From the NCBI GenBank assembly GCA_030147805.1, contig JASBUR010000008.1, positions 124,001 to 188,000 of the forward strand: DNA of 64,000 nucleotides. The letters are read 5' to 3'. The notes beneath the pieces were generated by a model. The model worked only from the letters and a program-made list of their open reading frames with translations, ran no database searches and was not told the origin of the DNA. Shown piece by piece: positions 8,166-61,970 of the stretch. This DNA comes from Sphingomonadaceae bacterium. Its GTDB lineage: Bacteria; Pseudomonadota; Alphaproteobacteria; Sphingomonadales; Sphingomonadaceae. Numbering within the stretch: the first letter of the stretch is position 1; each line of letters starts with the position of its first letter. The position numbers and the translations under genes are program-made.

Positions 8166-8594
8166 TCAGTCCTCGACGAACTCGACGACGTTGCCGGCGC
8201 AGTCGCGCACGAAGAACGCCCGGCCGAAGCTCTCGCCGACGGTGAGCACGATCTCGGCCCCCTTGGCCTTCAGCGCGGCGAGGAAGCCGTCATAGTCGCC
8301 GATCGCGAACGCCACATGCTTGTTGCCGTGGGTCCGGAGGTCGGCGTGCGGATGCCGCCGGTCCTCGGGGAGTGGCGCTGCGCCCTCGACCTCGAACATC
8401 TCCATCCGCAGGCCGTCGCGCTCGAGGAAGACCGCCTTGGCGCGAGCGCGCGGAATGTCGAACCGGCGCTCGACCGCGAAGCCGAGCATGTCGCGATACC
8501 AGGCGATGGCGGCTTCGAGATCGGGGACCGATACGCCGCCATGGTGGAAGCGCAGCGGCTGACGCGTCGCGGTCGGGGATTCGATGTCCGTCAT
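8166..8594 (-). CDS. Glyoxalase/VOC-family protein
   Basis: 142 aa, one vicinal-oxygen-chelate domain. The fold signatures are HHGGVSVPDLEAAIAWYRDMLGF, KHVAFAI and the C-terminal DCAGNVVEFVED block. His at about 17 or 18, His at about 93 and Glu near residue 140 are candidate metal ligands. The family covers glyoxalases, methylmalonyl-CoA epimerases and extradiol dioxygenases; single-domain members of this length are mostly lyases or epimerases. It is the last gene of the leftward operon that begins with the flavin reductase, starting 9 nt after the preceding dehydrogenase. Confidence 0.83.
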   Translation of the reverse strand: MTDIESPTATRQPLRFHHGGVSVPDLEAAIAWYRDMLGFAVERRFDIPRARAKAVFLERDGLRMEMFEVEGAAPLPEDRRHPHADLRTHGNKHVAFAIGDYDGFLAALKAKGAEIVLTVGESFGRAFFVRDCAGNVVEFVED

Positions 8595-31142: not shown

Positions 31143-31505
31143 TCATCTGGCGCTGCGCTCAGGCCACGGCGGCAGGTCGACCGTCTGGCCGGCGAGCGCA
31201 TGCGTACAGTCGTTCAGGAACTGGATCCGGCCGTCGCGGATAAAGCTGTGGCAGATACCGCAGGCCTTGCTGCCCTTCTTGCACAGCCAGCAGTCAGCAG
31301 CCGGTGTGCCGTCGGCATGGTGACCGCTCTTGCAGTGCAGAGAGGGGCTGAACGTCGGCCGCTCGACGTTGCCGTTGAACGTCCAGCGCGCGCCGTTGCG
31401 GAACGGCGTTCCGACCGCGACGGTGTGCGAATACCCACAGCCGGGGCAGTGAAAGGCGAAGTTCCCGCCCTCGACGTTCCGCAGGATGCTGGACAGCGCA
31501 CCCAT
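31143..31505 (-). CDS. DUF6527-like zinc-binding phage protein
   Basis: 120 aa. A zinc-ribbon-like CPGCGYSH at the N-terminus, an aromatic stretch with FNGNVERPTFSPS, then cysteines in CWLCKKGSKACGICHSF and a C-terminal DCTHALAG. The pattern matches the DUF6527 family found in tailed phages, of unknown function. The start shares one base with the endolysin stop (TGATG), so it is co-translated with the lysis cassette. Cys/His clusters suggest one or two metal sites. Confidence 0.75.
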   Translation of the reverse strand: MGALSSILRNVEGGNFAFHCPGCGYSHTVAVGTPFRNGARWTFNGNVERPTFSPSLHCKSGHHADGTPAADCWLCKKGSKACGICHSFIRDGRIQFLNDCTHALAGQTVDLPPWPERSAR

Positions 31506-32194
31506 CAGGCTGCCGCCGCAAAGCCGCGCGCCTTCTGCGCCAGACGGATGTCGTATCGGTTGAGCTTGTAGGCGGTCCCATTGTACCCGCGGGCGAAGGC
31601 GACCCAGTCGCCCTTGCGCAACGCCGGGAGCAGGCCCGCCGCGATGATGAAGTGCTCGAAGCCGAGCAGCTGCGCCGCCTCGTCGAACGCCATCGCGTTG
31701 GCGAACTCGAACGGATTGCGGAAGCCGCAGGCCCGATAGTTTTCGCCGAGGATCTGGAAGCGTCCGTAGCTCGCTGAGGCGAAGCCGGCGTCGACGTCGA
31801 GGCCGACGGCCGTCACCAGCTGCGCGTAGCGCTGCTCCTGCGTCGCCGGGTACCGGGTCCGGTCCCATTTCGGGTAGCTCACCTCCGGGTGCGCCGCGTC
31901 GAAGCGGCGGCCGGTCGCTTTCGAGAAGCGGTGCGGCTCGAACAGGATGACCGGCCGGCCGCCGGCGAAGCCGGATCCTGCGCTCTCGACCGCGTCGACG
32001 GCGCGGACATGCGCGACCGGCGCCTTCAGCCGCCGCGCACTCGCCTCGAGGTCGGCGAGCGTCAGCTTCGTGTCCGGCCCGTCGGTCATGGCCTCGATCA
32101 CGGCGGCGCGGTTCAGTCGGCCATAGATGCCGTCAATCGCGCCGGTGTAATAGCCGAGCGCCGCGAGGCGCTCCTGGAGCTCGCGGTGGTTCAT
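31505..32194 (-). CDS. Endolysin: peptidoglycan-binding plus N-acetylmuramidase domain
   Basis: 229 aa. Residues 1-38 form a short PG_binding_1-like repeat (LQERLAALGYYTGAIDGIYG). The rest is a DUF3380/N-acetylmuramidase domain with the catalytic glutamate at about Glu70 in VESAGSGF and the conserved FEPHRFSKATG and YGRFQILGENY blocks, as in SPN1S-type endolysins. It degrades the host cell wall at the end of infection and has no signal peptide, so it depends on a holin. Confidence 0.9.
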   Translation of the reverse strand: MNHRELQERLAALGYYTGAIDGIYGRLNRAAVIEAMTDGPDTKLTLADLEASARRLKAPVAHVRAVDAVESAGSGFAGGRPVILFEPHRFSKATGRRFDAAHPEVSYPKWDRTRYPATQEQRYAQLVTAVGLDVDAGFASASYGRFQILGENYRACGFRNPFEFANAMAFDEAAQLLGFEHFIIAAGLLPALRKGDWVAFARGYNGTAYKLNRYDIRLAQKARGFAAAA

Positions 32195-34231: not shown

Positions 34232-37200
34232 CTAGGCTCGCACGAAGCTGGCCGCGGTCACGGTGCCGATCGCGCCGCCGCTGCTCGAGGCGAAGGCGCG
34301 CAGGCGCAGCGCCTGCTTCACTCCGCTACTGTTGGTGTAGGTGCCGTCGGCGGTCACGTTGACCGGCTCGCCGACGTCGCCGAGCGCGCTGCCCGGCGTG
34401 CCGAGGTCGGTCCAGCTGCCGCCATCGACCGAATATTGGATCTTGATCGCGACCGTCGAGGCCCCCGAAAGCCCGGTGTAGCCGAACTCGGCCTCGGCGC
34501 TGCGCGACGCGCCGGCGTTCAGCACGAAGTAGAGCTCGGGGCTGGCGCCCAGCGCGGTGATCGGAGCGGTCTGCACCCCGCCCGAGGTCGCCGTCGCTGC
34601 GATCGTGGCCGCCGGAACGCCCGCCACGTCGCCGATCACGTCGCCGCCGAAGATCACACGCCCGCTCGAAACGCCGAAAATCAGGTTGTCGTCGGTGTCG
34701 TAGAAATAGACGTTTTCCGCCTGGTAGATGATGTCGCCGTCGGCGCCCTCGATTCGCATCGAGGTGATCCGCCCGCCGACGTTCGTCGACAGCGCGACCG
34801 TTGCCTCATTGCCGTTCGCGGTCGACAGCGCCAGCGTGGCCGTGGCCGAGGCATCGCCGACGTCGCTCGTCACCGCGATCAGCGCCGCAGCTTGCGCATC
34901 GATCGCGCCCTCGGCCGACATCACTCTGGTGTCGAGCGCACTCACCGCCGACGCCGACGCCTTGCCCGCCACATCGCTTTCCAGCGTCGTGACGTCCGAC
35001 GCGATCGAGGTGATCGTGCCCTCGGCCGTGGTCACGCGCGTGTCGAGCGCCGAAAGGGCGGAAGACGACGCCTTGCCGGCAACGTCGCTTTCGAGGCTGG
35101 TGATGTCCGACGCCAGCGTCGTGATCGTACCCTCGGCCGCCGTGACGCGGGTATCGAGCGCCGACAGCGCCGAGGATGACGCCTTGCCGGCAACGTCGCT
35201 TTCGAGGCTGGTGATGTCCGACGCCAGCGTCGTGATCGCGCCCTCGGCCGTGGTCACGCGCGTGTCGAGCGCCGAAAGGGCGGAAGACGACGCTTTGCCA
35301 GCGACATCGGTTTCCAGATCGGTGATCGAGGCCGCCTGCGCGTCGATCGCGCCTTCCGTTACCGTGACCCGGCCCGACAGCGTGTCGACAGCCGACGCAT
35401 CCGCCTTGCCGGCAACCGTGACGCTCAGCGCCGCGATGATCTCGGCCTGATCCTCGAATGCCGAGATCGTGATCTCGGCCGCCGACAGCCGCTCGCCGAG
35501 CCGGTCGACCGCGAAGATGCGCACCTCGCCGTTCGCCGGGTCGAGCACGATGCCGGCGTCGCGGAACATGGCGCGCGTCGTCGAGGCTTCGAGGGTCAGC
35601 CGGGTGACGCTGTTGCTGAGGTTGTCGAGGCTGCGCGTCAGGTACCGCGCGTTGTCGCCGATCGCCTCGCGCCCCGCCACGCCCTCGGCCGTCAGCAGCG
35701 CCAGCGCGTTGGTCGAAGGGTCGAACGGCACCGGCGCCACCGGCTGCACCGACCCGACCTCGTCCTCGTCCCATTCGTGGACGGCGGCATTCTCCTCGCG
35801 CAGCACCACGTCGACGCTGCCGTCGGCGTTGAAGGTCTGCTTGCGCACCCGGAACAGTTTCCCGTCCCAGTCGCGCGCCGCATGGTCGACCATCACCACC
35901 ATGTTCCGGCGCAGCAGCCAGCCGCGCACCTTGACGCGCACCGACAGCTCGCCGCGATACAGCGACCGCTGCGCCGCGATGTTGGTCAGCCGCTGCGCCT
36001 GGCCGTCGTGCTGCACCATGCGCAGCTCGAGGTTGAGCGTGCGCGGCGCCGCCGAGCTGCGCGGGATGGCCACCTCGGGAACGTCGATCATCCCGAACAG
36101 CGACGGCGCTTCGGCATCGGTGCGCTTCGCCCGCGCCACCGTGAACTGCTCGGCGATCGGCGGCTGCGGCACCCAGCGCAGCGGCCCCATGAAATCGTCG
36201 TCGGTCAGCGTGATCGTCGCGGTGGCGAGGTCGTTGTGCGCCACGCGCAGCGACAGCTCGCCCTCGTCGTCGACCCATTCGCCGCAGCAGGCGGCGGCGA
36301 ACGCGCCGAGCACCGCCATCGGATCGTCGCTGTCGAGCACCGCGCCGCCGGCGCGGTACCGCGGCTCGGTGCCGCCCGCCGCCAGCGTGACGTCCTCCTC
36401 GCACAGCCGCGCCGATGCCGCCATCGCCGCGCGGCCGATCCGCGTCACCGGTAGCGCCGGCCCCACCGACACCACGTCGCCGACCCGCCAGCCGATCAGG
36501 TAGCTCAGCGACTGCAGCGCCGGGTTCGCACCGATCTCGACGCCGTCCGCCTCATATTCCCAGGTCGACGTGTCGTCCCAGCGCATGGCACCCGACCCGC
36601 CCGGCATCGTCGAATCGCGCGCCGGGTCGTACACCGGCATGCCCCGCCCCTTGGCAGTGATCCGCCCCGGCAGCCCGCCCTGCAGCGGCGACGGCGTCTT
36701 GGCGTTGGCGCTGCGCTTGATGCGCAGCTTCATCGTCGCGCAGCCGGTCATGCGCTGCGCCGCGCCCCACCGGCTGCCGTCGTTGACGGTGTGATAGGCG
36801 GTGGCGCCGGCTTCCTCGATCACCTCGACCCATAGGAACCCGGCATAGGGCGCCTGCACGCTGCCGTTCCACGCCAGCTTCTCGTCGAACCAGATCTCGT
36901 CGACCGCGTGAATGCGATGCCCGGCGAGCGCGATGACATAATCGATATATTCGTCGTCGGTCCCCGAAGGCTCGACATAGCGCACGTTGATCGGGAAGGC
37001 GCACGGCCCGAAACAGATCGTGCGCGGCGCGTTCGGGTCAGTGTTGACCGCGCGCGGGTCAAAGGCGCTCAGGCCGACCTTGCCGCCCTTGGTGCCGCTG
37101 ACCGCACCTATCACCCCTTGCACCGCGGTCAGCGCCGCGGTGGTCAGCAGCGTGGCGCCGATCGCCGTCGTCGACAGGCCGATGCCGATGCCGCCGGTCA

Positions 37201-38954: not shown

Positions 38955-40997
38955 TCAGGCTCCGCGGAAGGAGGGCAGCGCCGGCCGCGCGACCCGGCGA
39001 AGCATGTCGGCGCTGGCTCCCACCGCACGCCGCACCGCCATCTCGGTGGCCATAGGGTCGGTCGATCCGCGCGCGTCGATGTAGCCGATCAACGGGGCAG
39101 TGCCGCCGACTCCGCCAGCGCCCTGCGCCGCCCACGCCGGGACGATCCGCCCCGGCACCGTCGGCTCGAAATATTCCTGGCCTCGCTCGTTTACCTCGTA
39201 GAAGAACCCGGGCTTCACTTGCCCGCCACCAGAACGACCGCCACCGAATAGCGAGGTGCCGACAGACGCGAGGATGCCGCCGATCCGACCGCCGTCCGTC
39301 GTCTTCTTGCCGAGAAGCAGGTCGAGCAGACCCGACGCTATGAGCTCGGCCGCCGCAGCCTTGATGCTGTTGACCAGCGCATCGCCGAGCGACTGCCCGT
39401 AGATGATCGCCTGCCCGAGGCCGTCGGTAAGGTTCGTGGCGAAGTTATCCAGCCGGCGGTTGGCTTCGTCGATCGCTGCGAGGCGCACTTCCGACGCCTT
39501 CGCCTCGGTGATCATCTCCTTTTCCCACGCCTCGTCGAGCTTCTTTACGCTGTCCTCGAGGGTGGTGACCTCCTTGCCCCAGTCTCGCTCCTCGATCATC
39601 GCTGCAATGAGCGGATCCTGCTTGAAGCGATCGGTGTAGGTCTTCGCAAAGTCGCCACTGTCGGGGACGTCGATCGAATAGTCCGGCTTGAACTCAGGCG
39701 CCTTCTTGCCCTTTTTGTCCTTCTTGCCGTCAAGGTCTGCGCCAGCTGGTTTATCGGATGCCGGAGCACGGCCGGTGACGACGATCTCCTCGTCGCCCGG
39801 CATGTATCCATACTTCGAATAGAATGAGCGTTCGAGCTGATCACGAGCGGCCGTGCCTCGCCCCAGCGAGTTGATGGCACGGAGGTCGTTCTGCTCAGGG
39901 CTGATGGTCTTGCGGCCCTGGGCCCGCGCCTGCGCTTCGGGAGGGCGCATGAACAAGAATTTCTCAAAATCCCCGTCGGCTAATGCACGCCCATACTCAC
40001 CTAGCGCTTCGCGGTTGGATATCGCGCTTCCAGCTACAGCGCCGACTGCCGCGCCAGGCAGGCCGCCGAACCGGCTACCGATGCCCGCGCCGAAGAGGAC
40101 GCCCGCCGCGTCCGGGTTGCTGCTCAGCCACCTAGCTACGTCTGCGCCGGCGCTGATTAGCTTTCCAGCGACGTTCCCGATCTCGCGAGCGAAGTCCTGC
40201 GCGCCGCTCGCACCATCAGCGAGCGACCGGGCAGCTTCGTTCACAGCCTCGTTGAACCCGCCTTCGCCGAACTCGCTGGTCAGGATCGCGACGCTGTCGG
40301 ACAGGTTGGAAAGCGCACCGCCGAGCGTCTTCGCCTGTTTCTCCATGCCGCCGGCGAACTGCACCTGCCCTATCCCGCGAAGATAGCCCTCGATCTCCGC
40401 CGAGTTTGCTTTCACCGTCGTGGTGACGCCCTGAAAGGTGAAGCGAACCTCGTCGCCCTGCTTGCTCGCGCGGATGCCGAACTCTTTGAGCCGCTCGAAT
40501 TCGCCCGTTGCCGCGTCGGCGATCGCCTCGACGAAGTCGTTGAGCGTCTTGCCCATCGCCCCCGCGGTATTGCCGTACGAGGTCAGCGCCTCGATCGATG
40601 GGTCGAGCCCGAGGTTCTTCAGCTTGACGAACGCCTGCACGACCTCCTGCAAAGCGAAGGGCGTCGTCGCAGCGAAGTCCTTCAACTTGTCGAAGGCCCT
40701 GTCTGCCTTCACCGCCGAACCGGTCGCCGTCTCCAGCGACACCCGAAGCGAGCTGAATTCCTTGTTGGTCTGGACGATTTGCCCGACGACGGCGCCGGCG
40801 AGCGCGCCCTTCAGGACCCCGCCAAGCGTCAGCGCGCCTTTCCCGAGATCGGCGAATCGCTGGTCGATCTTCTTCAGTTCGCTATCGACGCCGCCGCGAA
40901 ACCTGCCCACGTCGCGCTCCAGCGCAGACATGTTGCGGCGGGCGAGCTCGACCGAGGCGTCGACCTGGAGCATGAGCTGCTTGACATCATCGGCCAT
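38955..40997 (-). CDS. Tail tape measure protein
   Basis: 680 aa. A helical N-terminal part (DASVELARRNMSALERDVGRF) leads into the conserved phage tape-measure region with KDFAATTPFALQEVVQAFVKLKNLGLDPS and AATGEFERLKEFGI. A hydrophobic stretch (about residues 305-325), a Lys-rich linker (KKDKKGKK) and a C-terminal tip-binding region follow. The length predicts a tail of roughly 100 nm using about 0.15 nm per residue. It programs tail length and is ejected at infection. There is an ideal position after the chaperone pair, apart from the inserted plus-strand gene. Confidence 0.93.
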   Translation of the reverse strand: MADDVKQLMLQVDASVELARRNMSALERDVGRFRGGVDSELKKIDQRFADLGKGALTLGGVLKGALAGAVVGQIVQTNKEFSSLRVSLETATGSAVKADRAFDKLKDFAATTPFALQEVVQAFVKLKNLGLDPSIEALTSYGNTAGAMGKTLNDFVEAIADAATGEFERLKEFGIRASKQGDEVRFTFQGVTTTVKANSAEIEGYLRGIGQVQFAGGMEKQAKTLGGALSNLSDSVAILTSEFGEGGFNEAVNEAARSLADGASGAQDFAREIGNVAGKLISAGADVARWLSSNPDAAGVLFGAGIGSRFGGLPGAAVGAVAGSAISNREALGEYGRALADGDFEKFLFMRPPEAQARAQGRKTISPEQNDLRAINSLGRGTAARDQLERSFYSKYGYMPGDEEIVVTGRAPASDKPAGADLDGKKDKKGKKAPEFKPDYSIDVPDSGDFAKTYTDRFKQDPLIAAMIEERDWGKEVTTLEDSVKKLDEAWEKEMITEAKASEVRLAAIDEANRRLDNFATNLTDGLGQAIIYGQSLGDALVNSIKAAAAELIASGLLDLLLGKKTTDGGRIGGILASVGTSLFGGGRSGGGQVKPGFFYEVNERGQEYFEPTVPGRIVPAWAAQGAGGVGGTAPLIGYIDARGSTDPMATEMAVRRAVGASADMLRRVARPALPSFRGA

Positions 40998-41040
40998 GAG
41001 TCATTCTCTCCGGCGGTTCTGGCGGTAGGATGGGCCCGAT

Positions 41041-41247
41041 ATGGAAGGCTGGTCGCGACTGGCGATATTCATCTTCGCCTCACTATTGGCGCCATTGCTG
41101 ACGCTGTTCGTGGGCGCGATGATTGATTTTGGCAGCTGGAGCTTGCTCATGATGCTGCTCGGAGCGCTGGTCCTGCTGACAGCACTGCTTTGGCTATTCA
41201 TTCGCGGAATAGCTTGGGTACGTCAGGGCTTCAGCGAGGCAGATTAG
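41041..41247 (+). CDS. Opposite-strand two-helix membrane protein (candidate moron)
   Basis: 68 aa, MEGWSRLAIFIFASLL..., with two clear transmembrane helices (about residues 7-28 and 34-54) and an acidic C-terminus. It is the only plus-strand gene inside the minus-strand late operon and fills the gap between the chaperone and tape-measure genes. Its 3' end overlaps the small chaperone gene by 17 bp. Base composition is visibly less GC-rich than its neighbours. Such lone, independently expressed genes (morons) often give the lysogen new traits such as superinfection exclusion. The function here is unknown. Confidence 0.65.
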   Translation: MEGWSRLAIFIFASLLAPLLTLFVGAMIDFGSWSLLMMLLGALVLLTALLWLFIRGIAWVRQGFSEAD

Positions 41248-41370: not shown

Positions 41371-41751
41371 CTACTTCGCCGCCTTCGGAGGGTCCTTGCG
41401 TTCACCTGCCGCAGTGTAACCACCTGTCGATGCCAGCGAGAGCAGCGCGGCCAGCCGCTTCTGGGCGATGAACAACCCCCCGTCAGCCTCGTAGATCAGC
41501 TCGCCGACCCGCTCCGGCGCGACCTTGTCGAGGTCGCGCTTCGCCGCCGCATTGATGCACTCGGTCACAACGGCCTGCGCCCCCGACATCGAAAGCGAGC
41601 CGAGGCGCGCCGCGTCGGTGAGTTGGATGAGCGACAGGCCTGTCGCCCGCTCGAAGGCGGCGATCGCTTGGAAACTCGGCCGCAGGACATAGGTCTTGCC
41701 GCCGAGCACCATGTCGATCTCGCCGCGATGCTCGTTCGCCGCGCCAGCCAT
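41371..41751 (-). CDS. Tail assembly chaperone, GTA-gp10 family
   Basis: 126 aa. The core LGGKTYVLRPSFQAIAAFERATGLSLIQL is characteristic of the gene-transfer-agent gp10/phage tail chaperone family, followed by a helical C-terminal half and a polar tail. It acts during tail assembly, keeping the tape measure in solution. It overlaps the tail-tube gene by one base. Confidence 0.85.
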   Translation of the reverse strand: MAGAANEHRGEIDMVLGGKTYVLRPSFQAIAAFERATGLSLIQLTDAARLGSLSMSGAQAVVTECINAAAKRDLDKVAPERVGELIYEADGGLFIAQKRLAALLSLASTGGYTAAGERKDPPKAAK

Positions 41752-42170
41752 TACGACGTTGCGCCCAAGTCGTCGATGTCGGGCGTCGCGACACAGCCCA
41801 TGTTGAAGCTGAAGGTGGCGACGCCCTCGTTCGGGAAGTCAGTCGTGAAGTTGCCGATGCCCACGGCGCATTTGAACAGCACGACCGCGCCGCGCTTCAC
41901 CTCGACGTTGACCTCATTGGTCGACGATTTGGCGACGGTGTCGATCCGCTCGAGCGCAGTGTCAGGCAGCTTCAGCTTGCCGCTGGCAGACAGCGTCAGC
42001 TTCGGATTGACGTAGGTCGAAAGTCCGGGGTCGCCCTTCGACGACAGGTCGACCTCCGTCGACGACCGCGCCCAGGACAGCGAACCTTCGCCGCCAAGCG
42101 CCGTGAACACTTCCGAGCCGGCGCCATCGCCGACGAAAAGCTTCACGTCTTTGCCAAGAACATAGGCCAT
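41751..42170 (-). CDS. Major tail (tube) protein
   Basis: 139 aa, beta-rich, starting MAYVLGKDVKLFVGD. The pattern with SLSWARSSTEVDLSSKGDPG and a C-terminal GVATFSFNMG is that of the TP901-1/GTA-type tail tube proteins. It polymerises around the tape measure. A Shine-Dalgarno is present and the gene stands alone with a 66-nt leader, which could carry its own strong translation signal because this protein is needed in many copies. Confidence 0.85.
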   Translation of the reverse strand: MAYVLGKDVKLFVGDGAGSEVFTALGGEGSLSWARSSTEVDLSSKGDPGLSTYVNPKLTLSASGKLKLPDTALERIDTVAKSSTNEVNVEVKRGAVVLFKCAVGIGNFTTDFPNEGVATFSFNMGCVATPDIDDLGATS

Positions 42171-57110: not shown

Positions 57111-57284
57111 CTACGCTGCTGAGTGGTCCAGCTGCCGGGATGCGGCGCTGTGGCATTCACAGATGTCCTCGATGATCATGCGGCGCAGCTCCAGCATCTG
57201 CAGCCTGTCCTCTGCAACCGGGAGAAGATCTATCGCCGCGCCGGGGGCTAGACCGACCTGAAGGATTTCAGGTGAGGTCGTCAT
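57111..57284 (-). CDS. Small acidic phage protein (57 aa)
   Basis: MTTSPEILQVGLAPGAAID..., with a helical Leu-rich middle (VAEDRLQMLELRRMIIEDI) and a CxCH pair near the end. Function unknown. The ATG overlaps the stop of the DndC-like gene (ATGA), which supports that it is translated. Confidence 0.65.
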   Translation of the reverse strand: MTTSPEILQVGLAPGAAIDLLPVAEDRLQMLELRRMIIEDICECHSAASRQLDHSAA

Positions 57285-58519
57285 GCGCCCACCAGTTCGC
57301 GAAAGAGGATCGGCTCGACCGTGCCGTCCGGGTTCTTGCGATCGAGCCACGCATCCATGCTGGGCTCGCTGCCATCCCACTTGTTCGGCCAGGTCCGCGC
57401 TGCGATGAGTTCGCGGATCCTCTCCTCCTCTTCAGCATTGAGGATGTCGACGCCCGGCCGGCCGAGACGCGCAGCGGCGTCGTTGCACCGCGTCTGGATG
57501 TCGAGGACGCGACTGAGCGCCCAGCTGCGGGCCTCGAGCTTCAGCGGCCCGCCCCGCTGCCCCGAAGACGACAGCTTGCCATTCTTGAGCACCTCCGGCT
57601 CTGACTTGCGCAGCCGATGCTTGGCGAGGCGCAGTTCGCGGTATAGCGGCTTGAGCTCGAGCAACGGCGTCAAGTGCGTCCAGCCTTCCATGGCGACGAT
57701 CACGTTGAGCGCGATGTCCTCGCTGGCCAGCGGGCAGCCGATGCAACCGGTCCTAGCGGCGATGTCGCGCGCCTGATCGTCGCCGCCATATGCATCGACG
57801 AGGATCCGGGTGTCCCAACCGCCGAACTCGCGCATGGGCGCGAACGCGACCAGCCAGTCGAAGACGTTGCAGACCCGCCAGTGCAGGATCGGCGCCAGCG
57901 TTGCCACGCGGCCGCGGATGCCCGGGCTGTCGGGCAGTACCTGCTGATACCACCCCTGCCCGCACTCGGCGCCATCCTTCGAACACGACATGGCGATCCG
58001 GCCGTCGCGCACCGCGCTCTCGCCCTCGCGGACGCCGGTCAGCATGAGGATCGAGCCCTCGACGCCGGCGAGCGCAGAGGCCAGCGCCGCGGACATAGGG
58101 TCGACCTTGATCTGCCGCGTGCACCAGCGAAGCGTGCCGTTGTTCGGTGGCGGGACACCGCGTCCGAGCATGTAGACCATGAAGCGCTTGTCGAGCGGCG
58201 CCCGAACCACCTGAAGGTCGATCCACGGCCGCTGCGCCAGCTTTGCCATGATTGCCGCAGCGGCAGCCTGGATCGGCGGAAGCTCTTGCCGGGTGTCGGC
58301 GTAGTAGACGCGGAGCACATCGGGCTGGGTCAGCTCGCCCGCCTCGATGAGGTGGATGAGCAGCGTGAGCAGCAATGTCGAATCCTTGCCGCCCGACCAC
58401 GCGACGGCCTTGTGCCTGTGCTCGCTCCAATAGGCCTTGAGCGACTGCAAGGTCAGCTCGACAGCCTCCTCGTGCACCATGCGGGCGTCGCCAGCGAAGA
58501 TGTTGGCTTGCCGCGTCAT
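57281..58519 (-). CDS. PAPS-reductase/DndC-like PP-loop protein
   Basis: 412 aa. The ATP-pyrophosphatase loop SGGKDS is at residues 42-47. Further blocks are RWCTRQIK (Cys133), TGVREGESAVR, CSKDGAECGQGW and RTGCIGCPLASED (Cys259, Cys262), the cysteine layout of DndC-type proteins that carry an Fe-S cluster. DndC activates sulfur for DNA phosphorothioation; phage PAPS-reductase-like proteins are common but mostly uncharacterised. It is coupled on both sides (ATGA overlaps) and lies directly after a helicase-methyltransferase, suggesting a nucleic-acid modification role. Confidence 0.87.
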   Translation of the reverse strand: MTRQANIFAGDARMVHEEAVELTLQSLKAYWSEHRHKAVAWSGGKDSTLLLTLLIHLIEAGELTQPDVLRVYYADTRQELPPIQAAAAAIMAKLAQRPWIDLQVVRAPLDKRFMVYMLGRGVPPPNNGTLRWCTRQIKVDPMSAALASALAGVEGSILMLTGVREGESAVRDGRIAMSCSKDGAECGQGWYQQVLPDSPGIRGRVATLAPILHWRVCNVFDWLVAFAPMREFGGWDTRILVDAYGGDDQARDIAARTGCIGCPLASEDIALNVIVAMEGWTHLTPLLELKPLYRELRLAKHRLRKSEPEVLKNGKLSSSGQRGGPLKLEARSWALSRVLDIQTRCNDAAARLGRPGVDILNAEEEERIRELIAARTWPNKWDGSEPSMDAWLDRKNPDGTVEPILFRELVGA

Positions 58520-61227
58520 GCCGCCTCCGCGTCTGCGCCGAGCAGCGCGAACATCGTCGGCATGGCGATCTTGTCCTCGGCGGCGCGCGTATAGCGGACC
58601 GCATCCGGGTAATATTTATCGCCGTTGAGCTCGACGCCGAGCCCGCGCCGGCCGAGCGCCACCGCGCGCGCCGGCACGGTGCCGATGCCCGCGAAGGGGT
58701 CGAACACCAACTCGCCCGGCATCGAGCGCAGCCGGATGAGCCGGTCGACGATATCGATCTGGAGAGGGCATACGTGCTTCTCGCGGTTGCCGAGCGACTG
58801 CTCGTTGTTGAGCGTCCGCATCCGCGTGATGTCGCTCCACACCTGATCGCTGACCGCTTCGGGTGCGAGGCTCATGTAAGTCCGCGGCAGCCCGCCGCGC
58901 GGGTCGGCGGGGTCGCGGCCCGCCACGAGCTCGCCGAGGCGGACATGCTCCTCATGGTCGTAGATCGTGCCCTGCTGCGCTTCCTTGAACGCCTTGGGCA
59001 GCAGCGACGTCGGCAGCTTGGCCAGCTCGTCCGCGGTGAGGAAGCGGTCGCCCGACGATCGCCAGTGAGCGTGCGCGTCCACCTGCCACCGCGCCAGGCT
59101 GTACCCCTCCCCAGGGAGGGGTGTGAGCTCCCGGTGGTAGGGCTGGGGCTCGGCGTCCGGATCGTCGAAGTCGATGCACCGCGGCGGCTCGAGGCTCACT
59201 GGTGTGTCGGCATAGCCGCGCGATCGGTCGGTCTGCGGCCGGCGGAAGATGAGAACATATTCCGGCACGCCGGCGCCCATCTTCGTGCTGTCCTTGAGCA
59301 GCTCGCCGTAGCTGAGGCGGTAGGTCTGGTTGTTCTCGCGCACGACATCGGTGTCGACGGTGATGCGCGCCATCAGGTCGAAGCCGTGGCGGCGGAAGTG
59401 CGCGCTGACCTCGTCGCTGAACGGATCGAGCGTCGGCGCGCCCTTGCCGGTGACGTTGCCGAATCGGATGCGGTCCTTGACGTGCACGCACGCCAGCCGC
59501 CCGGGCTTCAGGATCCGGAGCAGGTTCGGCGTCAGAAAGTCCATTTGCGCGAAGAAGTGGCCGTTGTCGTCGGTGTGGCCGAAGTCGTTGTAGCTCGGCG
59601 TGTACTCATACTGGTTGCCGAACGGCACCGAGGTGACGATCAGGTCCACCGACGCGTCCGGCATCGCCGCCGTCTCAACGACGCTGTCGTTGTTGATCAT
59701 CCGCCACCGCGGCGCCGGGCCGTCGGGCGTCTCGATGATGTCGCCGACCGCCTCCTGGCGGACGCAGCCGATCGACCGGTAGAAGCCGCTGTCGGCGTCG
59801 ATGTGGTTGAGGCCGTAGCGGCGGATCAGCTCGGACATCCGCTCGACGAGCAGCTTGTGATCCTTCCACTTGCGCAGCAGGTCGCGCAGGATGGCAGCTT
59901 CGGTCTCGGCATAGATCAGGTCGATGACGACGGTCTTCGACTGCATGAAGCGCCACACCCGATGCACCGCCTGCAGGAAATCGTGGAACTTGTACCCGAC
60001 GCCGACGAAGATTTCCCGGTGGCAGTGGTATTGGAAGTTCCGACCGGCGCCGAGCATAGACGGCTTGGCGGCCAGCCGGGCCACCCTGCCCTCGGCAAAA
60101 TCGTCGGCGAGCGCCTCGTTCTGCTCGATGCGCTGCTTTCCGAAGACCGACGCGACCTCTGGCAGCGCCGCCTCGATCGCCTTCCGCTCATCCTCGAGAT
60201 CGTGCCAGAGGATGAAGTGATCATCCGGCGACGCCTCGACGATCTCGACGGCCTTGGCGACGCGCAGGTCGATGGTCGACCGCTTTTCGCGCGCCGCCTG
60301 CACCACGCCGATCGCCGCGTCGCGGAACAGCGCCGCCTGTCCGCGATCGTCGGCGTCGGTACCGGCGATATCGGTCTTCACCTCGTGGAAGCGCACGTCG
60401 AGCTCGGGGAGGACATAGCCGTCGTCCGGCAGGCCGAGGTCTGAAGGCTTCTGAAGGAAGCATGCCCAGCTGCTGACCCAGAGCCAGAACTCCTCCTCCT
60501 TGTGCGGATAGAGGGTGAGGTCGCCCGCCTTCTCGCTGTTGCGCTGGAAGAAGCGCGTCAGCGCCTGGCCGCTGTCCATGATGCCGAGGAAGGCGGCGTA
60601 GTGGATCAGCTCCTTATACCGGTTCGGCGCCGGCATGGCGGTGGCCACCAGCCGGTAGGGCACGCGCGCGAACATCGGCACGAAGATCTGATAGGTCTCC
60701 GACCCATAGTCGCGAAGGCAGGCCGCCTCGTCGAGGCTGGCGAAGGTGAACAGGTCGACGTCGATCTTGCCGTCGCGCACCGTCTCGATGTTGGTCAGGA
60801 AGTGGCGCGCGCCCTCCGCGGCGAGCGCCAGCACCTCGTCCGTCGACCGCACGAAGCGCAGGTCGATGCCGAGCAGCGCGGCGTCCTTCAACATCTCCGT
60901 CCGCGCGCCGAGCGGTCCGACGATCAGCGCCAGGTGCGGCAGCTCGGCGCGGCGCGGCGCGATCCCGTGCCGGAAGGCAAGCGCCAGCACCGCACGGCTC
61001 GCCGACAGCTGCATCGTCGACTTGCCGAGCCCGAAGGCGGCGAAGATCGCGCGGCGGCCGCCCTGCACCGCCCAGCGCACGATGTGCCGGTGATGCGCCT
61101 TCTCCGGCTTGCCGTCGGAGCGGTCGAGCAGGATGTCGGCGTCGGTGCACGGCAGCCCGAGCATCGGCGCCGGCGGGCGCTTCGCCTCGAGGAAGGCGCG
61201 ATAGGCGTCGGGCGCGAGCGTGGTCAT
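58516..61227 (-). CDS. Helicase-DNA methyltransferase fusion protein
   Basis: 903 aa with two parts. Residues about 40-430 form an SF2-like helicase: Walker A-type AFGLGKST (64-71), a DEAA Walker B in SLDEAAC (165-170) and a motif VI-like QAVHRVWRFMQ (419-429). Residues about 505-900 are a beta-class DNA methyltransferase: motif IV in TSVPFG (532-537, in place of the usual S/D/N-PP-Y/F) and, later, motif I DPFAGIGT (843-850). The motif order IV then I is that of many N4/N6 enzymes. It may remodel DNA while methylating it, or methylate unusual sites. ATG 61227 shares a base with the previous stop; a start at 61599 is rejected. Confidence 0.88.
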   Translation of the reverse strand: MTTLAPDAYRAFLEAKRPPAPMLGLPCTDADILLDRSDGKPEKAHHRHIVRWAVQGGRRAIFAAFGLGKSTMQLSASRAVLALAFRHGIAPRRAELPHLALIVGPLGARTEMLKDAALLGIDLRFVRSTDEVLALAAEGARHFLTNIETVRDGKIDVDLFTFASLDEAACLRDYGSETYQIFVPMFARVPYRLVATAMPAPNRYKELIHYAAFLGIMDSGQALTRFFQRNSEKAGDLTLYPHKEEEFWLWVSSWACFLQKPSDLGLPDDGYVLPELDVRFHEVKTDIAGTDADDRGQAALFRDAAIGVVQAAREKRSTIDLRVAKAVEIVEASPDDHFILWHDLEDERKAIEAALPEVASVFGKQRIEQNEALADDFAEGRVARLAAKPSMLGAGRNFQYHCHREIFVGVGYKFHDFLQAVHRVWRFMQSKTVVIDLIYAETEAAILRDLLRKWKDHKLLVERMSELIRRYGLNHIDADSGFYRSIGCVRQEAVGDIIETPDGPAPRWRMINNDSVVETAAMPDASVDLIVTSVPFGNQYEYTPSYNDFGHTDDNGHFFAQMDFLTPNLLRILKPGRLACVHVKDRIRFGNVTGKGAPTLDPFSDEVSAHFRRHGFDLMARITVDTDVVRENNQTYRLSYGELLKDSTKMGAGVPEYVLIFRRPQTDRSRGYADTPVSLEPPRCIDFDDPDAEPQPYHRELTPLPGEGYSLARWQVDAHAHWRSSGDRFLTADELAKLPTSLLPKAFKEAQQGTIYDHEEHVRLGELVAGRDPADPRGGLPRTYMSLAPEAVSDQVWSDITRMRTLNNEQSLGNREKHVCPLQIDIVDRLIRLRSMPGELVFDPFAGIGTVPARAVALGRRGLGVELNGDKYYPDAVRYTRAAEDKIAMPTMFALLGADAEAA

Positions 61228-61970
61228 CAGAATGCTCCTGACGGGATGCCGCCGAGCGTGCGGATCGGATCGGGCATCGGGATGTGCGGGATGAAGATGA
61301 GCTCGGCACCGGCCGCGGCCGCCGCGAGCTGCTCGTCGAAGGACAGGCGCCGCTTGGGACGGCCGCGCGCCGCCCGCTCCTTGGCGAGCACGTCGGCGAG
61401 GATGATGCGCTTCGCCTCCTTCGCGCTCTTCAGCTTGACGCGCAGCGCGCGATATTCCTCGAGCCGCTCCGGCGGACACCAGGCGGTGTGCGCCAGCCCG
61501 CCCTTCCGGCCTTGCGCCGCGGCGACCTCGGCGGGCAGCGACGTCCGGTACCGCCGAAGCCCTTCGATCGTGCGGGCCCGGGTCTCGGCATCGCGCCACT
61601 GCTTGCGCGCCGCGCGCGAGCGGCGGAGGCGGTTCTTTGTCTTCGCGTTCGTCTGCTTTTGGCTGGCGGTGCGCTTGGCGATCGCTACCGGATCCGCCCC
61701 GATGACCGAGAGGTGCGCGCGGCAGCGCTCGACGCGCGCTTCGTCATCCATCTTGAGCCCGAGGCGGCGGATCGCGGCGCCGGCGGCCCGGTGGTCGCAG
61801 CCGAAGTGCGCAGCCAGGTCCTTCAGCGAGACCTTGCGGGCGATCAGGCCCTCGACTTCGCCGCGCCGGCCCTTCCAGTCGATGTACGGCCGCACCGGCT
61901 TGGCCCGGCCGTCGAGGCCGAGCTGCCGCCCTTCTTCGGCGCGTTGGTCCCAGTCGATACGCTTCTTCAT
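61227..61970 (-). CDS. DNA-binding-type phage protein
   Basis: 247 aa, very basic in the middle (NRLRRSRAARKQWRDAETRAR). The N-terminal half has a helix-turn-helix-like SLKDLAAHFGCDHRAAGAAIRRLGL, and the C-terminal half has AHTAWCPPERLEEYRALRVKLKSAKEA, a block found in sphingomonad and rhizobial phage early proteins. It could be a transcription or nucleotide-modification accessory factor. It starts with TGATG overlap after the cysteine-rich protein and ends with the same overlap. Confidence 0.7.
   Translation of the reverse strand: MKKRIDWDQRAEEGRQLGLDGRAKPVRPYIDWKGRRGEVEGLIARKVSLKDLAAHFGCDHRAAGAAIRRLGLKMDDEARVERCRAHLSVIGADPVAIAKRTASQKQTNAKTKNRLRRSRAARKQWRDAETRARTIEGLRRYRTSLPAEVAAAQGRKGGLAHTAWCPPERLEEYRALRVKLKSAKEAKRIILADVLAKERAARGRPKRRLSFDEQLAAAAAGAELIFIPHIPMPDPIRTLGGIPSGAF

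What the first reader, a model, noticed from the sequence alone, without database searches (positions are those of the whole stretch)
41041..41247. Lone plus-strand membrane-protein gene inside the minus-strand tail operon
A 68-aa, two-helix protein is encoded opposite to all surrounding genes, precisely in the gap between tail chaperone and tape measure, with lower GC than its neighbours. This is the profile of a moron expressed from the lysogen, for example a superinfection-exclusion protein that blocks DNA injection.
Basis: partly seen in the sequence, partly recalled or inferred. Interest (0 to 1): 0.6.

Follow-up and report, generated by a model that had tools for sequence, protein, structure and literature searches.

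The report
Antisense membrane gene beside tape-measure gene
A small two-helix membrane protein is encoded backwards among the tail genes of a probably dormant virus of a bacterium, at a spot where related viruses either have nothing or carry other envelope proteins, so it is probably an accessory gene that shields the host cell from rival viruses, although this has not been tested.

Summary
ORF 41041-41247(+), 68 aa, is a predicted two-helix hairpin, opposite to all tail genes and lower in GC. The ORF therefore fills a 233-bp gap between TAC_6 and the tape measure gene (TMP).

Relatives make the case. Of 36 distinct related phage loci (window included; sphingomonads where the host is named), 24 are empty there (2-33 bp) and 12 are occupied (182-527 bp). 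All 12 carry an ORF with a transmembrane helix, signal peptide or lipobox: antisense in 10, sense in 2. Two antisense cargo families show coding-type substitution patterns. One cargo family (phrog_2320-like, unknown function) sits beside TMP again in Klebsiella, Salmonella, Paracoccus and Gordonia phages, antisense in the last two. HK97 gp15, a superinfection-exclusion protein linked to tail tube or TMP, occupies the same junction.

Best reading: a moron slot for envelope proteins, probably lysogen-expressed, that block DNA injection. "Moron" is well supported. "Exclusion" is inferred from location, topology and precedent; expression and phenotype were not tested, and the window protein itself has no detectable relative.

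The parts
41041..41247 (+). 68-aa two-helix membrane protein ORF, antisense to the tail operon (candidate moron, the subject of the finding)
   Evidence: ORF; two helices; codon-position GC; chance rate
41027..41030 (+). AGGA, possible ribosome-binding site 10 nt before the ATG
   Evidence: read directly; not tested
40981..41009 (+). weak promoter-like pair TTGACA-17-TTCTCT straddling the tape-measure start codon
   Evidence: best score around the start; the strict scan finds no promoter, so this is a hint only
   Evidence: PF09550, E 1.7e-7; frame
38955..40997 (-). tape measure protein (680 aa), downstream neighbour in the operon
   Evidence: PF20155, E 5.5e-15; phrog_1716, E 2.9e-61
41371..41751 (-). 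tail assembly chaperone, Phage_TAC_11 / GTA-gp10 type (126 aa)
   Evidence: PF11836, E 3.6e-8
41751..42170 (-). major tail (tube) protein (139 aa)
   Evidence: PF06199, E 7.3e-8; phrog_1407, E 2.3e-10

Best explanation
The ORF is a real moron gene sitting in a moron slot at the TAC_6/tape-measure junction of these siphophages. Shown here: the insertion, the antisense layout, the predicted membrane topology, and the repeated use of the junction by unrelated envelope-directed proteins. Inferred: it is transcribed from the prophage while the late operon is silent, from a plus-strand promoter near the tape-measure start. The hairpin sits in the inner membrane and interferes with the step in which the tape measure protein of an incoming, tail-related phage lets DNA pass the inner membrane (superinfection exclusion, working like HK97 gp15). 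The gene would lie next to TMP because exclusion gene and tail target are exchanged together, or because the junction tolerates inserts without hurting the late operon. My estimate: real moron gene about 0.8; acts by blocking injection about 0.45.
For: Junction empty in 24 of 36 distinct loci and occupied in 12, with no gap size between 33 and 182 bp. All 12 occupied loci carry an ORF with a transmembrane segment, signal peptide or lipobox; antisense in 10. Shuffle probabilities of such an antisense ORF in 11 of these loci sum to 0.59, against 11 seen, the ambiguous L106 counted. Coding-type substitution in antisense frames: L097/L141 dN/dS 0.34, differences by codon position 15,13,29; L096/L112 34,23,55. 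Two predicted helices in the window protein. Same junction used by HK97 gp15, empty in HK022; [quoted passage not shown] A phrog_2320-like envelope cargo family lies beside TMP in sphingomonad, Klebsiella, Salmonella, Paracoccus and Gordonia phages, antisense in three of these settings. An S24-type repressor outside the window suggests a temperate phage.
Against: No relative of the window protein anywhere searched, so no conservation argument for this very ORF. No convincing promoter and no terminator-like site after the ORF in the scanned stretch. The ORF alone is only moderately unlikely by chance (0.9% for two hydrophobic segments). The one-helix cargo family has weak resemblance to Rz-like spanins (L101: E 4.5e-4; distant matches L207 and L208 lie in a lysis-like cassette), so some occupants may have another role. 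The phrog_2320-like family also sits elsewhere in five inspected phages. No integrase model above cut-off near the phage. No phenotype or expression data.
Confidence: 0.45

Rival explanations
1. Chance ORF: the 233 bp are a decayed insert or spacer and the hydrophobic frame is an accident of the base composition of the plus strand.
For: No homologue. A covering plus-strand ORF arises in 36% of shuffles, one with a hydrophobic segment in 12%. No promoter by the strict scan.
Against: Two hydrophobic segments arise in 0.9%; codon-position GC follows the coding order; the other occupied junctions carry antisense envelope ORFs, two families of them with coding-type substitutions.
Confidence: 0.15
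2. Moron with another membrane function in the lysogen (for example envelope modification, stress or receptor change at adsorption) and not an injection block at the tape measure.
For: Many morons act otherwise (general knowledge). The cargo types at this junction are diverse (helix hairpins, one-helix, lipoproteins, a peptidoglycan-binding protein in Paracoccus phage Pkon1).
Against: Recurrent position next to TMP and the gp15 precedent favour an injection step.
Confidence: 0.25
3. Lysis-related protein (holin, antiholin or spanin-like) displaced into the tail operon.
For: Two-helix proteins of about 70 aa are typical of one holin class (general knowledge). The one-helix cargo of L101 weakly matches Rz-like spanins (E 4.5e-4); distant relatives L207/L208 lie in a lysis-like cassette just before the chaperone and TMP frames.
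Against: The window ORF matches no holin family. An endolysin of this phage lies elsewhere (31505-32194). Antisense orientation would take it off the late transcript.
Confidence: 0.08
4. The useful product is antisense RNA: plus-strand transcription through the ORF into TAC_6 dampens tail gene expression in the lysogen, and the protein is incidental.
For: The ORF runs into the 3' end of TAC_6 in the window and in L096; Gordonia Bunnybear gene 15 likewise overlaps its chaperone gene.
Against: Envelope signals and coding-type substitution in the antisense frames of relatives are not expected of a mere transcript.
Confidence: 0.04
5. Blocks tail assembly of incoming phages, like Tab of Pseudomonas phage JBD26.
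For: Tab is an 83-residue reverse-strand moron with its own promoter inside the late operon and targets TMP (PMC10884400, passages).
Against: Tab lies between the terminase genes and was soluble when expressed alone (same passages); the window protein is a predicted membrane hairpin; no anti-Tab-like partner was looked for.
Confidence: 0.03

Closest known systems
HK97 gp15 superinfection-exclusion moron
   Same: Small predicted inner-membrane protein (62 aa) encoded in an insert between tail chaperone and tape measure genes; the junction is empty in the relative HK022.
   Different: gp15 is on the sense strand and followed by an annotated putative terminator; it belongs to phrog_5031, which the window ORF does not match. 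gp15 has one N-terminal helix (recalled); the window protein has two predicted helices.
phrog_2320-like cargo (Gordonia Bunnybear gene 15, ES18 gp20, Klebsiella VIPKPNMC05, Paracoccus Pkon1 p57, sphingomonad locus L098)
   Same: Envelope-directed proteins encoded beside TMP, antisense in Gordonia, Paracoccus and L098; in Bunnybear the gene overlaps the 3' end of the chaperone gene as here.
   Different: No sequence relation to the window protein. They share a C-terminal domain with a conserved Cys-Gly-x-Val-Asn-Ala-x-Asn stretch that the window protein lacks.
Tab of JBD26, SieA of P22, Ltp of TP-J34
   Same: Prophage proteins that stop incoming phages; Tab is reverse-strand inside the late operon and acts on TMP; SieA is an inner-membrane injection blocker; the Ltp block is overcome by TMP changes (PMC10884400 and PMC10883804, passages).
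   Different: Tab lies between the terminase genes; the positions of SieA and Ltp were not checked here; no sequence comparison with them was made.

Membership tests
phage moron | inserted between two genes that are adjacent in related phages | tested here: met
   24 of 36 distinct related loci have 2-33 bp at the junction, the window has 233 bp
phage moron | base composition different from the neighbours | tested here: met
   GC 0.56 for the ORF; most neighbouring windows 0.60-0.70
phage moron | own promoter and terminator | tested here: inconclusive
   strict scan: no promoter, no terminator-like site after the ORF between 41247 and 41800; weak TTGACA-17-TTCTCT across the TMP start
phage moron | expressed from the prophage while lytic genes are silent | not testable with these tools
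   no RNA data; an S24-type repressor near the far end of the phage suggests a temperate phage, but no integrase model reached its cut-off there
HK97 gp15 family | sequence relation to gp15 (phrog_5031) | tested here: not met
   gp15 matches phrog_5031 at 5e-29; the window ORF has only two unrelated PHROG matches at E 0.4 and 0.77
HK97 gp15 family | encoded between tail chaperone and tape measure genes | tested here: met
HK97 gp15 family | membrane protein that blocks entry of phage DNA | not testable with these tools
   membrane hairpin predicted; phenotype needs an experiment
phrog_2320-like junction cargo | match to phrog_2320 | tested here: not met
   no match for the window ORF
holin | match to a holin family, or place in the lysis cassette | tested here: not met
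   no holin match; an endolysin lies at 31505-32194, far from the ORF

The most novel reading that the evidence does not exclude
The chaperone/tape-measure junction is a general cargo slot of temperate siphophages, seen in sphingomonad, Paracoccus, enterobacterial and Gordonia phages. Prophages keep there, often antisense so that the silent late operon does not matter, envelope-anchored proteins matched to the neighbouring tape measure. Lock (exclusion protein) and key (TMP) then travel as one exchangeable cassette, and the tape-measure class of a phage would predict which lysogens it can enter.
Probability: 0.3. Interest if true: 0.75.

Novelty: new variant of a known kind. Interest (0 to 1): 0.58.

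Why it matters
HK97 gp15 is one proven exclusion gene at this junction. Finding that the same junction is repeatedly filled, in phages of unrelated hosts and often on the opposite strand, by unrelated proteins whose common trait is envelope targeting gives a positional rule for finding new injection-blocking genes that sequence search misses, because such proteins are small, fast-evolving and sometimes not annotated. It also makes testable whether exclusion genes travel with the tape measure they act on.

Tried and rejected
Homologue searches for the window protein: Pfam and PHROGs, phage records, own genome (self only), 397 family genomes (142 of 397 with a match at E<=1; apart from the self match none below 7.6e-4; those listed lie mostly in long reading frames and look like hydrophobic-stretch matches), viral contigs, PADLOC: no relative.

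Codon-usage model from 91 long host ORFs: rejected, because GC1 0.79 and GC3 0.76 suggest that wrong-frame ORFs were in the training set; no number from it is used.

Promoter scoring around the tape-measure start: 10 occupied loci score higher than 24 empty loci (one-sided Mann-Whitney p 1.3e-4), but some loci are near-identical, occupied gaps may be richer in A+T, and the test was devised after seeing the loci; treated as a hint only.

Other junctions: where measured, the TAC_6 motif starts 5-44 bp after the TAC_11 stop, so nothing is inserted there (the value for the window in that call is an offset error of my script and is not used). Between tail tube and TAC_11 some loci have 219-395 bp; in L105, L118 and L120 this holds a same-strand gene; the others were not read.

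Rows dropped before the 36-locus count: L095 (a Bro-N-like antirepressor precedes TMP, by eye), L131, L132, L191 (no TAC_6 there), L145, L188, L189, L190 (no tape-measure motif found by my script), L185 (the window itself), L022 (same contig as L096), L146-L183 (second scan, 38 loci, apparently the same contigs, not re-analysed), L037-L039 (compact by eye, not counted), L032, and L021, L023-L025, L027-L031, L033, L034 (junction not examined). Chaperones of L112, L119 and L120 were assigned by eye.

Three comparison phages among the tape-measure hits (Alteromonas R7M, Pseudomonas ZQG1, Stenotrophomonas A1432) show no annotated antisense gene at the junction; ZQG1 has 270 bp there without a listed gene, not read.

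Full report
Observation. The 68-aa ORF at 41041-41247 on the plus strand is there, starts with ATG and stands against minus-strand tail genes. AlphaFold2, without an alignment, gives a two-helix hairpin with mean pLDDT 85.5. GC is 0.56; most neighbouring 200-bp windows lie between 0.60 and 0.70. The minus strand beyond TAC_11 gives a 42-aa frame that matches Phage_TAC_6 (PF09550, E 1.7e-7). It ends at 41231, inside the plus-strand ORF. The free gap between TAC_6 and the tape measure start is 40998-41230, 233 bp.

Is it more than chance? For the window alone, only moderately. In 5000 shuffles of the gap that keep dinucleotides, with real flanks, a plus-strand ORF covering at least 80% of the gap arises in 36%, with at least one hydrophobic segment in 12%, with at least two in 0.9%. 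Codon-position GC (0.57, 0.43, 0.68) follows the coding order; the 66-aa mirror frame on the other strand does not (0.42, 0.56, 0.73). A codon-usage model was discarded because its training set was contaminated.

The protein itself is an orphan. No family in Pfam or PHROGs (matches only above E 0.2) or PADLOC, no hit in 50,697 phage records, none in viral contigs, only itself in its own genome. Among 397 family genomes 142 had matches at E<=1, but apart from the self match the best was 7.6e-4, and the matches listed look like ordinary hydrophobic stretches, mostly of long reading frames.

The junction, by contrast, is informative. A viral contig with the same gene order (L022, the same contig as L096) has at the same place an antisense 70-aa two-helix ORF behind a strong ribosome-binding site (read by eye), also overlapping the 3' end of TAC_6. 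I then collected loci by the conserved N-terminus of the tape measure: 38 viral loci, 9 loci from species genomes, 8 of them Sphingomonas or Sphingobium and one Lonepinella that was dropped, and matches in 7 of 397 family genomes. Of the window plus the 38 viral loci, TAC_6 was located by motif in 33 of 39; 24 were empty (3-33 bp) and 9 occupied (182-475 bp). With L112, L119 and L120 assigned by eye and loci from genomes added, 48 loci collapse to 36 distinct ones, 24 empty (2-33 bp) and 12 occupied (182-527 bp). No gap lies between 33 and 182 bp.

All 12 occupied junctions carry an ORF with a transmembrane segment, a signal peptide or a lipobox, by simple hydropathy or by eye. In ten it is antisense: the window (two helices), L096 and L112 (two helices, 37% identical to each other), L097, L101 and L141 (one helix, related to each other), L098 (one helix), L113 (lipoprotein-like), L121 (one helix), L126 (signal-peptide-like). 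In two it is sense: L106 (lipoprotein-like; an antisense frame with a hydrophobic stretch also exists there) and L036 (signal-peptide-like). For the 11 loci tested (all but L036), the shuffle probability of an antisense ORF covering 80% of the gap with such a signal is 0 to 0.15, summing to 0.59, against 11 seen, L106 counted. The loci are not independent: they represent about eight cargo types.

Antisense coding is supported by comparison within two cargo families. L097 against L141: 78% nucleotide identity, differences by codon position 15, 13, 29, dN/dS 0.34. L096 against L112: 34, 23, 55, with synonymous sites saturated. L097 against L101 is weaker (28, 26, 36; dN/dS 0.72); L101 against L141 gives 28, 21, 39 and 0.38. 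One sense frame shares the wobble positions and gives similar ratios, but no sense ORF covers 80% of the gap in L096, L097, L112 or L141.

The slot is not limited to sphingomonad phages. The L098 cargo matches phrog_2320 (E 6.1e-14, unknown function). Relatives lie beside the tape measure gene in Klebsiella phages VIPKPNMC05 and ST899-OXA48phi17.2 (sense, between tail genes and TMP), in Klebsiella phage 5 LV-2017 (sense, not annotated in the record), in Salmonella phage ES18 as gp20, annotated 'possible moron', in Paracoccus phage Pkon1 as p57, antisense, with a signal-peptide-like start and a peptidoglycan-binding domain, and in Gordonia phage Bunnybear as gene 15, a lipoprotein-like frame that is antisense and overlaps the 3' end of the chaperone gene, in a phage annotated with integrases and an immunity repressor. 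All of these match phrog_2320. Sixty Gordonia records match one of the queries; only Bunnybear was inspected. Against a strict link, the family also occurs at other places in five inspected phages: Fraca, 48ST307, PAJU2, SEN5, YMC11/02/R656.

Mechanism. HK97 gp15 occupies the same junction (8203-8391), which is empty in HK022. [quoted passage not shown] the original paper was not held). [quoted passage not shown] Tab of JBD26 shows that a reverse-strand gene with its own promoter inside the late operon can be expressed from the prophage and act on TMP (PMC10884400, passages). From these and the anatomy I infer that the window protein is made by the lysogen and interferes with the passage of DNA of tail-related phages through the inner membrane. 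Shown: insertion, orientation, predicted topology, recurrence of envelope cargo at the junction. Inferred: expression, target, phenotype.

Results that cut the other way. The one-helix cargo weakly resembles Rz-like spanins (L101, E 4.5e-4), and its two distant matches L207 and L208 (E 2e-5) lie in what looks like a lysis cassette just before chaperone-like and tape-measure-like frames (by eye), so a lysis role for some occupants is not excluded. The antisense promoter is unresolved: the strict scan finds none; a weak TTGACA-17-TTCTCT pair lies across the tape-measure start codon, and occupied loci score higher there than empty ones, with the reservations given under Tried and rejected.

The phage is probably temperate: an S24-type repressor (PF00717, E 1.3e-9) lies on the plus strand outside the window (L198 5685-6473). 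No tyrosine or serine recombinase model reaches its cut-off on this contig, so integration was not shown.

Literature. Searches for moron, tape measure, tail assembly chaperone, superinfection exclusion and hotspot, for Sphingomonas prophage exclusion and for Gordonia phages with opposite orientation and tape measure listed no paper whose title or abstract start describes this junction as an antisense slot for envelope proteins. Of the listed papers I saw passages of five (PMC10883804, PMC10884400, PMC9936078, PMC11436027, PMC13190303); the rest only as search listings, and most subscription journals are not held.

Verdict. An orphan ORF in an unusual place. As a gene it is a new occupant of a known kind of site; the recurring, often antisense, envelope-directed cargo at the chaperone/tape-measure junction is the part worth following up.

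Noticed in passing
   Followed up: yes
window 57281-58519 and 58516-61599 (-): A phosphoadenosine-phosphosulfate-reductase-like protein (phrog_12882, E 1.2e-199) lies next to a large protein with an N6/N4 DNA methylase domain.
   Followed up: no
L198 5685-6473 (+), outside the window: S24-type repressor on the same contig, with no recombinase above cut-off on that contig; how this phage integrates is unclear.
   Followed up: partly
L095 1754-2986: A Bro-N-like antirepressor frame, not a chaperone, precedes the tape measure in this viral contig (by eye).
   Followed up: no
L207 2382-3950 and L208: Holin-like, endolysin-like and Rz/Rz1-like frames stand just upstream of chaperone-like and tape-measure-like frames, an unusual place for a lysis cassette (by eye).
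   Followed up: no
L201 3453-3806 (Klebsiella phage 5 LV-2017, 36669-37019): A signal-peptide-like, phrog_2320-like ORF before the tape measure gene is not annotated in the public record.
   Followed up: partly
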